Shown in pieces: positions 15,812 to 50,352 of a stretch of 64,000 bases of DNA. A program made the position numbers and the translations under genes. This stretch comes from Sediminibacterium sp. (GTDB lineage Bacteria; Bacteroidota; Bacteroidia; B-17B0; Aurantibacillaceae), in contig JASGCO010000001.1 in NCBI GenBank assembly GCA_030054095.1, forward strand, positions 210,831 through 274,830, written 5' to 3'. Within the stretch, counting starts at the first letter, position 1; each line of letters starts with the position of its first letter. A model generated the notes under the pieces. It saw only the letters and a list, made by a program, of their open reading frames with translations. It was not told the origin of the DNA and searched no databases.

Positions 15812-15954
15812 TGGGAGCGGGGTCGGGCCATACGCTATAGCCTGCCTGCCCTTTGCGGCTTTTGCTGCGGCTCCGGGGGCTTCTCGGGTCGCCGCCTCGC
15901 CCGCGCAAAATCACGCAAATGTCTATGCAGGGCTGCCGCTTCTGTCCCTCACGG
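15812..15954. repeat. GC-rich intergenic repeat, copy 1
   Basis: A markedly GC-rich block in an AT-leaning genome. It shares three blocks with copy 2 at about 48260-48420 in the same order and spacing: a 27-nt block at 15833-15859 (CGCTATAGC...CTTTGCGGC), GGTCGCCGCC at 15887, and GGCTGCCGCTTC at 15931. Similar elements ending in GCTGCCGCTTC.....C(C/G) occur between genes in many Bacteroidota genomes as far as I recall. The short open frame crossing it on the minus strand is not a gene. The rest of the 373-nt gap (15726-16098) shows nothing else. Confidence 0.7.
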
Positions 15955-43617: not shown

Positions 43618-44433
43618 ATGAAAAAAGCCTTCATCTTATTTTTATTAACTGTTTCACTTGGAGTGTACTCTCAGAAATTAGACACACTGAATATTTACTA
43701 TCTTAATAATAGTTCATTTGCGTTTCCTGATAACGGCACCGTAAGTGGCATTGAAGCCGATATTATTAAAGAATACGCTGCCTGGTTAAAAGCCAAAAAA
43801 AACATATCTGTTTATCTTAATTTCAAGAGTTTTGATGGTTTTGAAGCTTTATATAACGCCGTAAAAAAAGGCGATAAAAAAGTAATTGGCATGAGCACCG
43901 CCGCCATTAATCCTGAACGTGAAAAAGAAGTGGATTTTTCGCCTCCTTATATGAAAAACGTAAGTGTTTGTATTACTAACGGTACAGCAGGTACTATCCG
44001 CGATAAATCCAGTGCCGAAGTAAACCGGGTATTAGGCAAATTGACAGCTGTTTCCATTCCCAACTCTACGTTTAACACTTACCTTACTAATCTGAAAAAA
44101 ACACTTATTCCGGGACTTAAAATAACAAACGTTACACGGGTAAGTGAAATTCTGGAAAGCATTGCCTCTAACCCTGGTACATTTGGGTATGTTGATGTGG
44201 TTGAATACTGGTACTATCTTAAAAACAATCCAAATAAATACCTTAAAATGCAAAAAGAACTAAACATGAACAATGAACGTTTTGGCTTTATTATGCCCAA
44301 AGGGAATTTGAATAAAGATTTATTAGGCGAATTTTTTGAAAGCGGTTTTGGGTTTACCACTACCAAAACCTACCATCAGATTTTAGAAAAGTATTTAAGC
44401 TACGAGGTATTGCAGACTGTTGAGGTAGATTGA
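43618..44433 (+). CDS. Periplasmic type 2 solute-binding-protein-like protein, paralogue 1
   Basis: 271 residues with a signal peptide ending near 'VYSQ' (19). Body is of SBP_bac_3 (amino-acid-binding) fold: 'GTVSGIEADIIKEYAAWLK', 'IGMSTAAINPEREKEVDFSPPYMKN' (as INPEREKEVDFSPPY), then 'FGYVDVVEYWYYLK'. The adjacent gene at 44623 is a clear tandem copy. No ABC permease or ATPase is near, so the pair may be stand-alone sensors or enzyme-like domains rather than transport subunits. Divergent from the suf operon, and ended by a terminator. Confidence 0.82.
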   Translation: MKKAFILFLLTVSLGVYSQKLDTLNIYYLNNSSFAFPDNGTVSGIEADIIKEYAAWLKAKKNISVYLNFKSFDGFEALYNAVKKGDKKVIGMSTAAINPEREKEVDFSPPYMKNVSVCITNGTAGTIRDKSSAEVNRVLGKLTAVSIPNSTFNTYLTNLKKTLIPGLKITNVTRVSEILESIASNPGTFGYVDVVEYWYYLKNNPNKYLKMQKELNMNNERFGFIMPKGNLNKDLLGEFFESGFGFTTTKTYHQILEKYLSYEVLQTVEVD

Positions 44434-44622: not shown

Positions 44623-45432
44623 GTGAAGAAGATTTGCTTTATAGTATTTTCATGTTTTTTAGGCATGTTCGTGAGCGCTCAGGTTACACCTGACACGCTC
44701 TATGTTTCCTACATGCCGCATTCCCCCTTTGCATTTAACGATGGGGGTACACTGAAAGGTCTCGAAATTGACATTATCAACGAATACATTATCTGGTTAA
44801 AAACCAACAGGAAACTAAACATTGTTGGCGCTTTTAAAGAGGTGAAAGAATTTGACCCTGTTGGCGAGATGAAAAAATCTAACTCAAAAACAATAGGTCT
44901 TTGTACCGCTACTATTAATCAGGAAAGATTAAAAGACGTTGATTTTACAACACCTTATCTGCAAAATGTAAGTTTTTGCATCACCAATGGCAATGCCCCT
45001 GACGCTAAATCGCGGACTCCTAACGAAATTACGAAAACGCTCGGGTCAATGACTGCCCTCACTGTCGCTAATTCCAGCCTCAGTAAGTACGTGAGCGAAC
45101 TTAAAAAAAACTATCTCCCTAACCTGCCCGTAACGTTAATAGGAAGCCAGTCTCAGATTCTGGACAATATCTCCAAAAACGTTCTTAATTTCGGGTATGT
45201 AGACGCGGTTGAATTTTGGTACTATCTTAAAACCAATCCCGGTAAATTTTTAAAAATTCAGAAACCCCTTAATCAAAGCAAAGAACAATTGGGTTTTTTA
45301 CTGACCAAAGACAGCAAACACAAAGCGTCATTTGACATGTTTTTTACCGAATACAAGGCATCTCCTAAATATAAACAGTTGCTCGAAAAATACCTGGGGG
45401 GCTACATGATGCAGACTATGGCGCTAAAGTAA
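44623..45432 (+). CDS. Periplasmic type 2 solute-binding-protein-like protein, paralogue 2
   Basis: 269 residues starting at GTG, signal peptide to about residue 19 ('FVSAQ'). It shares layout and motifs with the previous gene: 'GGTLKGLEIDIINEYIIWLK', 'TATINQERLKDVDFTTPYLQN' (as INQERLKDVDFTTPY) and 'FGYVDAVEFWYYLK', ending with 'KYLGGYMMQTM'. The RDD-family membrane gene begins 1 nt after its stop, so these two are one transcript. Role unknown; presumably binds an amino acid-like ligand. Confidence 0.82.
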   Translation: MKKICFIVFSCFLGMFVSAQVTPDTLYVSYMPHSPFAFNDGGTLKGLEIDIINEYIIWLKTNRKLNIVGAFKEVKEFDPVGEMKKSNSKTIGLCTATINQERLKDVDFTTPYLQNVSFCITNGNAPDAKSRTPNEITKTLGSMTALTVANSSLSKYVSELKKNYLPNLPVTLIGSQSQILDNISKNVLNFGYVDAVEFWYYLKTNPGKFLKIQKPLNQSKEQLGFLLTKDSKHKASFDMFFTEYKASPKYKQLLEKYLGGYMMQTMALK

Positions 45433-45433
45433 C

Positions 45434-46039
45434 ATGCCCACTAAAATTACCGAAATAAAGCAACAAAAAACCATCACACGCAGAGAAAGGATTAATGGCG
45501 TTTTAACTCCTGTTCAAAAAACCATTACGGGATTTGTCCCCGTTCCCTATGTTACCGGATGGGCGCGTTTTGGACATCATTTATTGGACATCATATTTGT
45601 GTACATACTCAATCTTATCCTCACCACTTTAATTTATACACTGTTTAACCTATTCTCTTTTCAAAGCGGCAGTTACAACGACTTCGAAAACGGAAACACC
45701 GGCATAAGCTTTTTCCTTATTTTTTTCCGATGGCTGATTGTAACGCCAGGGTATTACCTGTTGTTTGAATACGGCATGCAATCATCCCCGGGCAAAGCTA
45801 TACTAGGCCGGATCGTAGTGGACGAGTATGGCGAAAAACCCACACTTAATCAATTGCTGATCCGTTCGTATGTCCGCATTGTGCCGTTTGAAGCGTTTTC
45901 CTGCCTGAGCGATACCGGCTGGCACGACAACTGGAGCAATACGCTGGTTATCCGTAAAACAGATCTTCACAACCTTAAACTCATGCAACGCATTCAGGAA
46001 GTGGAAGGTACTTCTGAAACAAAAACCCCCGGTGCTTAA
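45434..46039 (+). CDS. RDD family membrane protein
   Basis: 201 residues. 'VTGWARFGHHLLDIIF' (about 32-47) and 'SSPGKAILGRIVVDEYG' with 'LLIRSYVRIVPFE' are the RDD pattern of Arg and two Asp positions around two to three membrane segments. A basic N-terminal stretch of about 30 residues precedes it. RDD proteins have no settled function, though a few act as Na+ or other antiporters. Coupled to the binding-protein gene; its stop coincides with the first base of the fold-back element. Confidence 0.88.
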   Translation: MPTKITEIKQQKTITRRERINGVLTPVQKTITGFVPVPYVTGWARFGHHLLDIIFVYILNLILTTLIYTLFNLFSFQSGSYNDFENGNTGISFFLIFFRWLIVTPGYYLLFEYGMQSSPGKAILGRIVVDEYGEKPTLNQLLIRSYVRIVPFEAFSCLSDTGWHDNWSNTLVIRKTDLHNLKLMQRIQEVEGTSETKTPGA

Positions 46040-46217
46040 ACCGTAAATAGACAGTAGATTTTGTAATGAGCGCCAAAAGTTGCAATGGGTTTGAGGAGCG
46101 CAAACTTGAGGACTGTAAGAATATCTAACGATATTTTGAAGACCGGAAAGTTGAGCATTCTCAAACGCAGCCGCAAATTTTGGTGCGTAATAAAAATCCT
46201 ACTGTCTATTTACGGTT
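46039..46217. repeat. 179-nt fold-back (hairpin) element
   Basis: Terminal inverted repeats of 19 nt match exactly: 46039-46057 (AACCGTAAATAGACAGTAG) and its reverse complement at 46199-46217. Inside, further imperfect pairs follow in register ('GAGCGCCAAAAGTTGC' with 'GCAAATTTTGGTGCG'; 'GTTTGAGGAGC' with 'GCATTCTCAAAC'), down to AATATC-TAAC-GATATT at 46120-46135. The exact midpoint is 46128, so the whole element is one symmetric hairpin. No coding frame. Could be a MITE or an RNA structure. The remaining gap to 46363 shows nothing identifiable. Confidence 0.8.
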
Positions 46218-46363
46218 AAATAAATAAGCCTCCATCGGCAGCATTCCTGAAATTTAGGGTTCCACTTCGGCTCCACCACACACTTTGCGCCTTGTAAAAC
46301 AATACTTTTCCATTAAAACCGTTATCTCCTCACAGAAAAAATGTAGCTTTATCAGAACATTTC

Positions 46364-48226
46364 ATGTTAAACACGAACGCGCTTTCTTTATCCGGCACCA
46401 AATGGTGGAAAAGCCCATCAGTAATCGCCATTTTACTATGCATTAGTGTGATAGCCGTTTACAACTATCTCTACTTTTCTACCCGCCTCATTGCCTGGGA
46501 CGTGTTCGGTCATTACTTTTACCTGCACCTCGTTTTTATTAAAGGCGATATCACATTTAAAAACGCGCACTTTGTCGAGTCCATTGTAAGAGAGTACAAC
46601 ATCAGTTCCTCACTTTACCAGTTACACAAATCCGAAACAGGATATTGGGTAATACGCTACCCCGCTGGCGCATCGGTATTGCAACTCCCCTTCTTTTTAA
46701 TAGGTCATCTGGCCGCTAAAATTTTCCATTATAAAGCCGATGGGTTTTCTCTTCCCTACAACTACGCCATGATGGCCTGCAGCTGGTTTTATGCCATAGC
46801 CGGAATGGTGTACCTCCGTAAACTGCTGAAACGCTTTTTTTCAGAACCGGTAGTCGCCATTACCCTGTTGCTGATTGTAGTATCATCAAATACTTACGCC
46901 TACTTTGTACAAAACGTCAGCGTTCATAACCTGCTTTTCTTTTTAACAGCATTTATTCTGCATACCAGTTTTCAATGGACCGAAAAGCCGGGTATTAAAC
47001 ATTCGGTTTTACTCGGCTTTGCCATTGGCATCAGTTTCATTTCCCGCCACACCGAACTTATTGTGTGTGTGTTTCCGGCACTTCTTAACGTCTATAACAA
47101 AGAAAGCGCAATTCAAAAATGGCAGTTTCTCCTCCGGCACAAACGGTACATTTTCATAGCGGGTGGCACCTTTCTCATCGCCATTAGCCCGCAAATCATT
47201 TACTGGAAAATCGTTACCTCCCATTTTCTTTACAATGGCTATTGCGATAACCCCGGCGAAGGACTCGATCTCTTGTATCCGCACCTCGGCGATTACCTCT
47301 TCAGCTTCCGTAAAGGCTGGCTGGTGTATTCCCCCATCATGATTTTTTCCTTAGCGGGGCTGTTCTTTATGTACAAACGCAACAAAACCATTTACTTGTC
47401 CTTTACCCTGTTTTGCGGTATTACCATTTACGTACTCAGCAGCTGGACCATCTGGTGGTATGCCGAAAGTTTCGGGCAACGCTCCATTGTACAAGCGTAT
47501 CCCGTATTTGCCATTCCTATGGGCTTTTTCATTCAACACCTCCTCACGCGTCATGCCTTTCAAAAAATCGTGTTTGCCATTACTGCACTGGCGCTTACCC
47601 TACTCTCGCATTTTCAGTACTGGCAAATTCAGCAGGGTATATTGCACCCTTCGCTCGTAACACCTGCCTACTATTTTAAAACCTTCCTTAAAACCAAATT
47701 AAAAGGTGATGAAGCCAAACTCCTGCTCATTGACCACCATAACCCCAATCTCAAATTCAGCGATGTTAAACACGATTACCATTACCTTAGCACTTACAGC
47801 CTTAATCCGCAAAACGAACCACAACACGAAACCGAAAATGGCATCACTTACCATATTTACACCATGCAAAAAACCGACACATTTAATAAATACATTTTAA
47901 AAGTGCCCTTTCATCAATTGGTGCATAAAGACCACGCCTGGTTCCGCTGTTCTGTAAAAATAAAACGCGATAGCAGCATCCAACACGGAGCCATTATCCT
48001 TTCGCTTGTTAATCACCACTCCTGGAAAACCTACTCCCATCGCTCCGTCGAAAAACCAATCGATTCCATTCCCCCCGGAATCTGGCAGGAAATCACCATG
48101 GAAACGCTTTCCACTGTACCCCGGCATCCCGGAAAAGATGTTGTAAAACTACAATTGTGGAACCGCGATGGTTTAACCTTCGCTATAAAAGACCTTAAAA
48201 TAGACGTGTTTGAAAAAAACGATTAA
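46364..48226 (+). CDS. GT-C-like multi-pass membrane protein, paralogue of the suf-embedded gene
   Basis: 620 residues with about 11-12 membrane segments and a C-terminal soluble beta-rich domain (about 475-620). First external loop 'STRLIAWDVFGHYFYLHLVF' contains the Asp expected for GT-C catalysis. Later blocks 'RYPAGASVLQLPFFLIGHLAAKI' (as RYPAGASVLQLPFFLIGH) and 'SFRKGWLVYSPIMIFSLAGL' (as FRKGWLVYSPIM) parallel 'HTIGESVLLLPFFLVGWML' and 'FDNGFFIYTPLCLVFIAGI' of the protein at 39837-41594, so the two are paralogues. Likely transfers a lipid-phosphate sugar; a DPM1-like GT2 gene lies at 59.6 kb. Its own transcription unit. Confidence 0.75.
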   Translation: MLNTNALSLSGTKWWKSPSVIAILLCISVIAVYNYLYFSTRLIAWDVFGHYFYLHLVFIKGDITFKNAHFVESIVREYNISSSLYQLHKSETGYWVIRYPAGASVLQLPFFLIGHLAAKIFHYKADGFSLPYNYAMMACSWFYAIAGMVYLRKLLKRFFSEPVVAITLLLIVVSSNTYAYFVQNVSVHNLLFFLTAFILHTSFQWTEKPGIKHSVLLGFAIGISFISRHTELIVCVFPALLNVYNKESAIQKWQFLLRHKRYIFIAGGTFLIAISPQIIYWKIVTSHFLYNGYCDNPGEGLDLLYPHLGDYLFSFRKGWLVYSPIMIFSLAGLFFMYKRNKTIYLSFTLFCGITIYVLSSWTIWWYAESFGQRSIVQAYPVFAIPMGFFIQHLLTRHAFQKIVFAITALALTLLSHFQYWQIQQGILHPSLVTPAYYFKTFLKTKLKGDEAKLLLIDHHNPNLKFSDVKHDYHYLSTYSLNPQNEPQHETENGITYHIYTMQKTDTFNKYILKVPFHQLVHKDHAWFRCSVKIKRDSSIQHGAIILSLVNHHSWKTYSHRSVEKPIDSIPPGIWQEITMETLSTVPRHPGKDVVKLQLWNRDGLTFAIKDLKIDVFEKND

Positions 48227-48259: not shown

Positions 48260-48420
48260 CGCCCCGCCAGCACTTCTAAAAAACCGCGCTTTTCGCTATA
48301 GCTTGCTTACGCTTTGCGGCATCGCATCAGCGTGCGTGGGCTCCCGCTGGTCGCCGCCACCGCTGTGCGCTGCTCGCAAAGCGCCGCGCAAGGCTGCCGC
48401 TTCAATCGCTTGGCCGGTCG
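48260..48420. repeat. GC-rich intergenic repeat, copy 2
   Basis: Shares with copy 1 (15812-15954) a 27-nt block at 48294-48320, GGTCGCCGCC at 48349 and GGCTGCCGCTTC at 48392, in the same order with spacing within one base. It marks the left side of the AT-rich island. Between here and 48940 the sequence is AT-rich with no gene; an imperfect inverted repeat around 48795-48860 (ACGCAT...ATGCGT) is the only structure seen. Confidence 0.7.
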
Positions 48421-48998: not shown

Positions 48999-50189
48999 AT
49001 GAAATTTTTAGCAAACAATAAATCGGACAACCACCTAACAGTTCTCACGGACAATTTAAAACTCTATGACGAAGCTTTCTTTGCTGTTGCATTTCTAAAA
49101 ATTTCGGGACTGAACAAACTAATTCAGACAATAAAGGAATTTCTTAAATCAGGCGGACAAATCACAATCATTGCAGGACAAAATTTTGCATTGACCGAAC
49201 CCGAAGCACTGCACACACTGCGCAAACTTTTTCTGACTTATCCAACATCAAAACTCTATTTAGCAAAAGCAAATTCAGCAAACAGCGTATTTCATCCAAA
49301 GCTATATTTATTCAAATCCAAAAATGACTGTTGCATAATTTCTGGCTCCGCAAATATTACCGAAGGTGGTTTGACCAACAACAAAGAAACCTCTCTCATT
49401 GCCGACTGTAATGACACAGACGCAATTTGGAACGAAGCAAAAAAATATTTTGACACTTTAGTTTCTGCTGACACCTCAGACGAGGCGACTTTACTTGTAA
49501 TAAAACAATATGAGACATTCTACGAACAGCAGAAACAACACAACAAAAAAGCAAAACCAATTCCGACAAAAACAAAATCACAGTTAGCTTTTGACTATAA
49601 TAATCTACTAAAACATTTTCAGAAGTTTGACAACGCAACTCGACAAGAAAATTTCAAGGACAAACTTTACAATTACAGAGAAGCTAAAAAGGTGTTAGAC
49701 GAAATTGCCGACAATTCACGACTGACACAAAAACAATTTGAACCACTCTTGGACACGCTTGTAGGAAGCAAAGAAGAATACAATTTGTGGCACTCTGGGA
49801 GTTTGTTCAGATTACGTAGGTCTGTTTACCCTTACTACAAAGAATTTCGTGATTTAGTAAAATACATCCGTGAAAATAAATCTTTATCGGCAACAGTTGT
49901 TTTTGAAAATGCAAAAGAAAAGGTAAAAATGATTGAAGGCGCAGCTGTGAATTATATCACAGAAATAATGATGACATACAATCCAAAGGACTTTGCCAAT
50001 ATGAACAAAAATCCAATTACGGTTTTAAGACAAGAAGGCGGAGTAAATATTAAAGCATCTTCATCATCGTTTACTGGAGTGGACTATGAAGAATATTGCG
50101 ACTTGGTAAAAGAGATTTCATCGAAACTTGGCTTACAAAATATGCTTGAAGCCGACAGCTTCTTTAACGACATTTACTGGAAAATATAA
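48999..50189 (+). CDS. Phospholipase D-like (PLD fold) protein
   Basis: 396 residues. A single PLD half-site is visible: H99-P-K101 ('FHPKLYLF'), then 'SGSANITEGGL' (S115-N119) and Glu130 ('NNKE'), the degenerate HKD version seen in BfiI/NgoFVII-type and related nucleases, which act as dimers. The C-terminal ~250 residues are helical, charged and not recognised. AT-rich codon use differs from the rest of the window, and the gene is bracketed by cassette-like repeats, so it is probably acquired. A nuclease or defence role is possible but unproved. Confidence 0.72.
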   Translation: MKFLANNKSDNHLTVLTDNLKLYDEAFFAVAFLKISGLNKLIQTIKEFLKSGGQITIIAGQNFALTEPEALHTLRKLFLTYPTSKLYLAKANSANSVFHPKLYLFKSKNDCCIISGSANITEGGLTNNKETSLIADCNDTDAIWNEAKKYFDTLVSADTSDEATLLVIKQYETFYEQQKQHNKKAKPIPTKTKSQLAFDYNNLLKHFQKFDNATRQENFKDKLYNYREAKKVLDEIADNSRLTQKQFEPLLDTLVGSKEEYNLWHSGSLFRLRRSVYPYYKEFRDLVKYIRENKSLSATVVFENAKEKVKMIEGAAVNYITEIMMTYNPKDFANMNKNPITVLRQEGGVNIKASSSSFTGVDYEEYCDLVKEISSKLGLQNMLEADSFFNDIYWKI

Positions 50190-50216: not shown

Positions 50217-50352
50217 AACCGCTAACAGCACCTACCAGTAATTGGCGCGGACGAGGTAATATAAAGTTTTGTATCTTTAAACAAACATTTGTGGGTATAG
50301 ACAGTTGAGTGTTCCAAAACGCCAACTACTGGTAGCTGCAAACCGTTAGCGG
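50217..50352. repeat. attC-like inverted-repeat element
   Basis: Outer arms CCGCTAAC (50219-50226) and GTTAGCGG (50345-50352) are exact reverse complements. Inner arms 50232-50247 and 50320-50335 pair at 15 of 16 bases (CTACCAGTAATTGGCG type). The layout, with RYYYAAC/GTTRRRY-like ends and a spaced second pair, resembles integron attC recombination sites. It also contains ATAAAGTTTTGT (50261-50272), shared with the element at 55974. The remainder of the gap to 50560 has only a scrap of reading frame. Confidence 0.6.

What the first reader, a model, noticed from the sequence alone, without database searches (positions are those of the whole stretch)
46039..46217. Symmetric 179-nt fold-back element with 19-nt exact ends
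The outer 19 nt pair perfectly, inner segments pair imperfectly in register, and the apical AATATC-TAAC-GATATT sits on the exact midpoint 46128. It is thus one long hairpin. It begins on the RDD stop codon, lacks a T-run on either strand, and carries no reading frame. Candidates: a MITE, a structured RNA, or an unusual bidirectional terminator.
Basis: seen in the sequence. Interest (0 to 1): 0.58.

Follow-up and report, generated by a model that had tools for sequence, protein, structure and literature searches.

The report
Hairpin-shaped non-autonomous IS1380 transposon
A short "jumping" DNA element without genes, carrying the ends of an IS1380-type transposon and sitting in many places of this bacterium's genome, whose long hairpin fold has been kept by evolution through matched mutations, mainly on one strand.

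Summary
The fold-back is real. It is one copy of a dispersed family, not single copy. The element is 46041-46215 (175 nt, CCG...CGG), flanked by the 5-bp duplication TTAAA (46036-46040, 46216-46220); the RDD stop codon lies inside the left duplication. Own genome: 18 places with this family and 25 with a sister family. Many copies carry identical 5-bp flanks (29 of 55; shuffles mean 12.9, maximum 23). Its 17-nt terminal repeat bounds an intact IS1380-family transposase gene in another Bacteroidota genome; the sister family's repeat bounds another IS1380 element with duplication TTCAA. It is therefore a MITE of IS1380 type; no IS1380 transposase was found in this draft genome. Less ordinary: the whole 175-nt hairpin covaries between species (29 of 69 pairs with double changes; 30 of 63 in the sister family). 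The better fold is on the same strand in 27 of 27 and 22 of 22 elements, and fixed G-A mismatches are kept. Selection on a folded single strand, RNA or ssDNA, is the likeliest reason; no transcript was tested. A terminator is not supported. Verdict: new variant of a known kind.

The parts
46041..46215 (+). the element (175 nt palindromic MITE, family 1); + is the strand that folds better and carries the core GAGGACTGTAAGAATA
   Evidence: copy boundaries; fold
46036..46040 (.). left target-site duplication TTAAA (holds the RDD stop codon TAA 46037-46039)
   Evidence: sequence; TSD test
46216..46220 (.). right target-site duplication TTAAA
46041..46057 (+). left terminal inverted repeat CCGTAAATAGACAGTAG
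   Evidence: 17/17 identical to the end of the IS1380 element in L082
46199..46215 (-). right terminal inverted repeat
46063..46070 (+). conserved subterminal block GTAATGAG (lower internal loop, 5' side), shared with family 2
46186..46192 (+). conserved subterminal block CGTAATA (lower internal loop, 3' side), shared with family 2
46108..46123 (+). conserved apical core, 5' side GAGGACTGTAAGAATA
   Evidence: alignment A1
46132..46141 (+). conserved apical core, 3' side TATTTTGAAG
   Evidence: alignment A1
45434..46039 (+). upstream RDD-family gene whose stop codon lies in the left target duplication (context, not part of the element)
46364..48226 (+). downstream PMT_2-family gene (context, not part of the element)

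Best explanation
46041-46215 is a non-autonomous transposable element of IS1380 type. An IS1380 transposase acting in trans recognised its 17-nt terminal repeats and inserted it into the TTAAA that carries the RDD stop codon, duplicating TTAAA and leaving the stop intact. Shown by sequence: dispersed copies, 5-bp duplications, and the same ends on IS1380 transposase genes. Inferred: that this transposase moved it. The hairpin through its whole length is a selected feature, not a mere by-product of inverted ends: interior stems change in matched pairs between species while certain mismatches stay fixed, and one strand folds better. I infer that the element works partly as a folded single strand, most likely as RNA when it is transcribed (about 0.5), otherwise as single-stranded DNA during replication or transposition (about 0.3), and that this fold helps it spread or be tolerated between genes. 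The confidence given is for the IS1380-type MITE; for 'the fold itself is selected' it is about 0.75.
For: Copies: 18 places of family 1 in the own genome by my grouping of the E<=0.01 matches, 8 of them with both ends; three are 97-100% identical and share nothing evident outside. End pattern with up to 3 mismatches: 26 hits against 1 for the reversed control. Target duplications: identical 5-mers on both sides in 29 of 55 elements against a shuffled mean of 12.9 and maximum of 23 in 20,000; among 10 more elements from one relative 8 are identical, including TTGAA, ATTAT (twice) and ATAAT. Parents: an exact-pattern scan found 23 stretches; L082 carries both ends around a 438-aa ORF that scores 256 bits with NF033539 transpos_IS1380 (cut-off 180); L094 carries both ends around a decayed copy. 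Family-2 ends bound an IS1380 gene in L138 with TTCAA on both sides. Fold: A1 93.8% of cells paired, 29 of 69 pairs with double changes, covariation 0.319 against 0.142 shuffled and at most 0.068 when slid; A2 0.335 against 0.161 and at most 0.090. 21 of the 29 lie inside the end helix. Strand: better fold on the sequence-defined strand in 27/27 and 22/22; G-A against C-T mismatches 93:14 and 83:14 cells on strand-neutral structures.
Against: No orthologous empty site was found. No IS1380 transposase is seen in the own assembly, though it is a 74-contig draft and repeats can break contigs. L082 ends at its right repeat, so its target duplication is untested. The strand preference appears with DNA parameters too, so RNA and ssDNA are not separated. 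Elements show no orientation bias to co-directional neighbours (16 with, 12 against), which argues against a role that needs the sense strand of a neighbour's mRNA. Among 15 mostly decayed copies 3 fold better on the other strand, and so does L233. Copies are related, so counts are not independent events. G-T against A-C columns are even in A2 (32:32).
Confidence: 0.9

Rival explanations
1. The palindrome is kept without selection: arm-to-arm template switching (quasipalindrome correction) copies mutations from one arm to the other and so mimics compensatory change in an otherwise ordinary MITE.
For: Explains paired changes in a long palindrome without any function; inferred, the double changes alone do not exclude it.
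Against: It should erase mismatches and be blind to strand, yet fixed mismatches persist (G-A in 17 of 17 at A1 columns 30/188, A-G in 17 of 17 at 85/121), G-A outnumbers C-T by 176:28 cells and one strand folds better throughout.
Confidence: 0.2
2. The hairpin is selected as single-stranded DNA, for example on the lagging strand or as a transposition intermediate, and not as RNA.
For: Same strand preference with DNA energy parameters, 27/27 and 22/22; no orientation bias to genes.
Against: Five-bp target duplications and DDE transposase ends point to ordinary double-strand insertion; the parents I looked at (L082, L138) show no such hairpin beyond the ends on reading.
Confidence: 0.3
3. A cis-acting terminator or mRNA 3'-end element of the RDD gene.
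For: It starts at the stop codon and folds very stably on the coding strand.
Against: It is one insertion of a mobile family that sits in all gene contexts (22 convergent, 16 with, 12 against, 13 divergent); no T-run; the stop-codon position follows from the TTAAA target.
Confidence: 0.08
4. The matched changes in the stems only reflect co-evolution of both ends with the transposase.
For: Both ends must fit the same transposase; end families differ between lineages.
Against: 21 of 29 double-change pairs lie inside the end helix, and the subterminal blocks that families 1 and 2 share lie inside different ends.
Confidence: 0.1

Closest known systems
IS1380 family insertion sequences (NF033539; ISEcp1 as the known relative)
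   Same: Terminal repeats identical to an IS1380 element (L082) and, for the sister family, to L138; 5-bp target duplication as described for ISEcp1 (PMC2887853, passages seen)
   Different: No transposase gene; 175 nt; palindromic through the whole length
ERIC/RU-1 and YPAL/RU-2 palindromic elements of enterobacteria
   Same: Intergenic, about 127 and 168 bp, inverted repeats, foldable as RNA (PMC2229807, passages seen; sizes also in the PMC2759123 abstract start)
   Different: Unrelated host group; here the ends are tied to IS1380 and a 5-bp duplication; their sequences were not compared here
Correia/NEMIS elements of Neisseria
   Same: Small inverted-repeat elements whose transcripts are proposed RNase III substrates (PMC2229807, passages)
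   Different: No transcript or RNase III evidence here; other parent
CIR elements of Caulobacter/Brucella and stem-loop repeats of Borrelia plasmids
   Same: Repeat elements with phylogenetically conserved RNA-type folds (PMC2229807; PMC2674063, passages seen)
   Different: Different sizes and hosts; no IS1380 ends named in the passages seen
MITECca01 of Cardinium (Bacteroidota)
   Same: MITE traced to a parental IS by its ends (PMC9769881, passages seen)
   Different: IS982 family, about 240 bp; no whole-length hairpin in the passages seen

Membership tests
MITE of an IS1380-family element | Terminal inverted repeats shared with an autonomous element | tested here: met
   L082: 17/17 and 16/17 to the window repeat around an IS1380 transposase
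MITE of an IS1380-family element | Target-site duplication of the parent's length | tested here: met
   5 bp in the MITEs; 5 bp TTCAA in L138; L082 right side is missing
MITE of an IS1380-family element | Short, no transposase gene, several dispersed copies | tested here: met
   175 nt, no ORF of 60 aa, 18 places in the own genome
MITE of an IS1380-family element | Actually moved by that transposase | not testable with these tools
   needs a transposition assay
MITE of an IS1380-family element | Parent present in the same genome (usual, not required) | tested here: not met
   0 matches in the 74-contig draft; parent may be lost or unassembled
Structured RNA family | Covariation in stems beyond shuffled and slid controls | tested here: met
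Structured RNA family | Transcribed | not testable with these tools
   no RNA data
Structured RNA family | Match to a curated Rfam family | tested here: not met
   no match at gathering score in the window; only PYLIS_5 at E 3.9, far below its cut-off
Intrinsic terminator | Short G+C-rich hairpin followed by a T-run | tested here: not met
   read directly from the sequence; 175-nt rod, no T-run on either strand

The most novel reading that the evidence does not exclude
A mobile structured RNA (or ssDNA) element: a hairpin with conserved internal loops that spreads through several families of the same bacterial class by wearing the ends of different IS1380 lineages, where the folded strand itself is needed for its spread or for its host to tolerate it.
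Probability: 0.3. Interest if true: 0.7.

Novelty: new variant of a known kind. Interest (0 to 1): 0.45.

Why it matters
Bacterial MITEs are usually treated as inert deletion derivatives. Here a whole-length hairpin with fixed internal loops and one preferred strand has been kept while its sequence turned over and while the transposon ends differ between two families. That makes it testable whether the fold of a MITE, and not only its ends, decides its success. It also explains a class of strong intergenic hairpins in this genus that could be mistaken for terminators or riboswitches.

Tried and rejected
Rfam at gathering score and at E up to 10: nothing credible. Empty site: the downstream gene has homologues of only 30-35% identity in 15 other genomes of the genus; the two whose upstream genes I read (L237, L238) have another neighbour, so no empty site. 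Orientation bias to genes: none (the neighbour calls are simple ORF calls, and an insertion inside a gene would not be recognised by them). Excess at gene 3' ends: 72 facing 3' ends against 54 facing 5' ends in 63 elements, my count, not convincing. Vectors: 0 hits in viral contigs for three patterns, none in plasmids. Repeated inner hairpin module in the longer variants (L005, L006, L071, L208, L210, L211, L224): seen by eye; one rough pattern scan of the 258 loci gave hits in 5 and no answer. Kink-turn or other named RNA motifs: considered from memory, no clear fit.

Rows left out: alignment A1 used 17 of 36 collected family-1-ended elements (dropped: variants with long inserts, near-duplicates, other interiors); A2 used 18 of 22 (four with inserted hairpins left out; 9 of 31 loci gave no pair of ends); the duplication test used 55 of 58 (L085, whose flanks are identical, and L100 and L119, whose flanks are not, were dropped); one search used 27 of 36 and 22 of 22. 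An earlier count said 24 family-2 elements; the right number is 22 (corrected).

Full report
Observation. The fold-back at 46039-46217 is real and far beyond chance: MFE -87.2 kcal/mol for 46019-46237 against -43.1 +/- 4.6 in 200 shuffles, and the strongest inverted repeat reported in the window. Ends, midpoint and apex are as described.

It is a repeat family. In the own genome (4.63 Mb, 74 contigs, window = C38:210831-274830) a DNA search gave 47 matches at E<=10; the matches at E<=0.01 fall into 18 places by my grouping, eight of them with both ends and the rest fragments. Two other copies are 97% identical over the whole length and look unlike it outside. The end AACCGTAAATAGACAGTAG occurs 26 times with up to 3 mismatches against 1 for the reversed control. 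Of 60 relatives searched (own included) 8 have a match, all in the same genus, of which 37 were searched.

Boundaries and target duplication. Comparison of copies sets the element at 46041-46215, CCG...CGG, between two copies of TTAAA (46036-46040, 46216-46220). Over 55 elements of both families (3 of 58 left out) 29 have identical 5-mers on both sides; shuffling partners gives 12.9 on average and at most 23 in 20,000. Ten further elements of relative G027 give 8 identical pairs, among them TTGAA, ATTAT and ATAAT. The RDD stop codon TAA lies inside the left TTAAA, so the insertion left the stop in place; the position at the stop codon is a consequence of the A+T-rich target.

Parent. A scan of the species-genome collection for the 19-nt end gave 23 stretches, mostly Bacteroidota MAGs. 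In L082 (CALMMX010000044.1) the two ends bound a 438-aa ORF that is an IS1380-family transposase (NF033539, 256 bits, cut-off 180; PF13701). L094 has the same ends around a decayed copy. No IS1380 transposase was found in the own assembly by protein (E<=1e-10) or family model (E<=1e-5); in the genus 5 of 40 genomes have a match and 2 pass the cut-off, G036 and G027, both rich in family-2 ends.

Sister family. A covariance model of 17 copies (R1) matched 12 of 40 genus genomes, including hairpins with other ends, CCCAGATTATGCATTAG. These ends bound an IS1380 gene in G036 with TTCAA on both sides (L138). End matches with up to 3 mismatches number 56 in the own genome, 114 in G027 and 48 in G036; 35 of 40 genomes have at least one, but most low counts are near the control level of 0-3. 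A DNA search in the own genome gave 31 matches, 25 places by my grouping. Families 1 and 2 share subterminal blocks (GTAATGAG and CGTAATA in the window copy) inside different ends: the best pairs reach p<0.001 by shuffling, but 7 of the 40 arm comparisons made have p above 0.04. Outside the genus, R1 matched 3 further genomes among 295 of the class and a family-2 model R2 3 further among 395 of the phylum.

The fold is conserved. Alignment A1 (17 elements): RNAalifold gives 63 pairs, 30 with compensatory double changes. On a structure built from Watson-Crick pairs only, so that both strands are treated alike, 93.8% of cells pair, 29 of 69 pairs show double changes, covariation is 0.319 against 0.142 shuffled and at most 0.068 slid. 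By helix, 21 of the 29 lie inside the end helix. Alignment A2 (18 elements) gives 90.1%, 30 of 63, 0.335 against 0.161 and at most 0.090. These controls do not remove relatedness, and the structures were derived from the same alignments.

One strand is preferred. With orientation set by sequence, not by folding, the same strand folds better in 27 of 27 family-1 and 22 of 22 family-2 elements, with RNA and with DNA parameters; for the interior alone 26 of 27 and 22 of 22 (RNA), 27 of 27 and 22 of 22 (DNA). On strand-neutral structures G-A mismatches exceed C-T by 93:14 and 83:14 cells, and G-T exceeds A-C by 65:45 and 79:38; by columns G-T against A-C is 29:14 in A1 but 32:32 in A2. Of ten G027 family-2-ended elements nine carry the motif and fold better on its strand; the tenth, L263, has another interior and does not. 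Exceptions: 3 of 15 mostly decayed copies and L233. In L166, L168, L228 and L230 the model had matched the other strand; reading the motif by eye, the motif strand is again the better fold.

Interpretation. Mobility and IS1380 affiliation rest on several independent sequence features. That the hairpin is itself selected is supported by interior covariation together with fixed mismatches and strand preference, which arm-to-arm correction would not predict. Whether the selected molecule is RNA or ssDNA is open. Elements are not biased in orientation to neighbouring genes (16 with, 12 against; 22 convergent, 13 divergent; of 73 elements 63 had both neighbours called), so a simple sense-strand role in neighbours' mRNA is not favoured.

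Known literature, as far as searched. Small palindromic mobile elements with RNA-level roles are known (ERIC, YPAL, NEMIS, CIR; PMC2229807, passages), conserved stem-loops in repeats too (PMC2674063, passages), and a MITE traced to its IS in Bacteroidota (PMC9769881, passages). ISEcp1, an IS1380 member, makes 5-bp duplications (PMC2887853, passages). Searches combining IS1380 with MITE or non-autonomous, palindromic MITEs in Bacteroidetes or Flavobacteria, NEMIS/ERIC with RNase III, ISEcp1 with 5-bp duplications and covariation with miniature elements listed no paper whose title or abstract start describes an IS1380 MITE of this kind; only the listings and the passages named were read. PMC4133298 (IS1380 passages), PMC10813416 (passages) and PMC2267715 (no searched term found) gave nothing closer.

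Noticed in passing
L005 1507-1752, L006 1506-1751 (own genome), L071 1263-1522 (G010): Longer variants of 246-260 nt carry extra hairpins near the apex; similar modules (GGCA-stem-TGAGC) also sit in family-2 elements L208, L210, L211, L224, as if a smaller hairpin module moves among the elements.
   Followed up: partly
L085, L088 (KLAP24), L130, L131 (G001), L132 (G014), L063 (G036), L263 (G027): Palindromic elements with the same or similar IS1380-type ends but unrelated interiors; some repeat the end sequence inside themselves.
   Followed up: no
window 15928-15942 and 48389-48403; own-genome loci L028 and L179: A G+C-rich sequence (CAAGGCTGCCGCTTC and neighbours) recurs between genes of this genome and looks like another dispersed repeat.
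   Followed up: no
window 43618-44433 and 44623-45432: Two similar adjacent ORFs; the second scores as solute-binding protein family 3 (SBP_bac_3); possibly a tandem duplication.
   Followed up: no
window 48999-50189: ORF with a phospholipase-D-like domain (PLDc_2) beside several short inverted repeats (for example 50228-50339).
   Followed up: no
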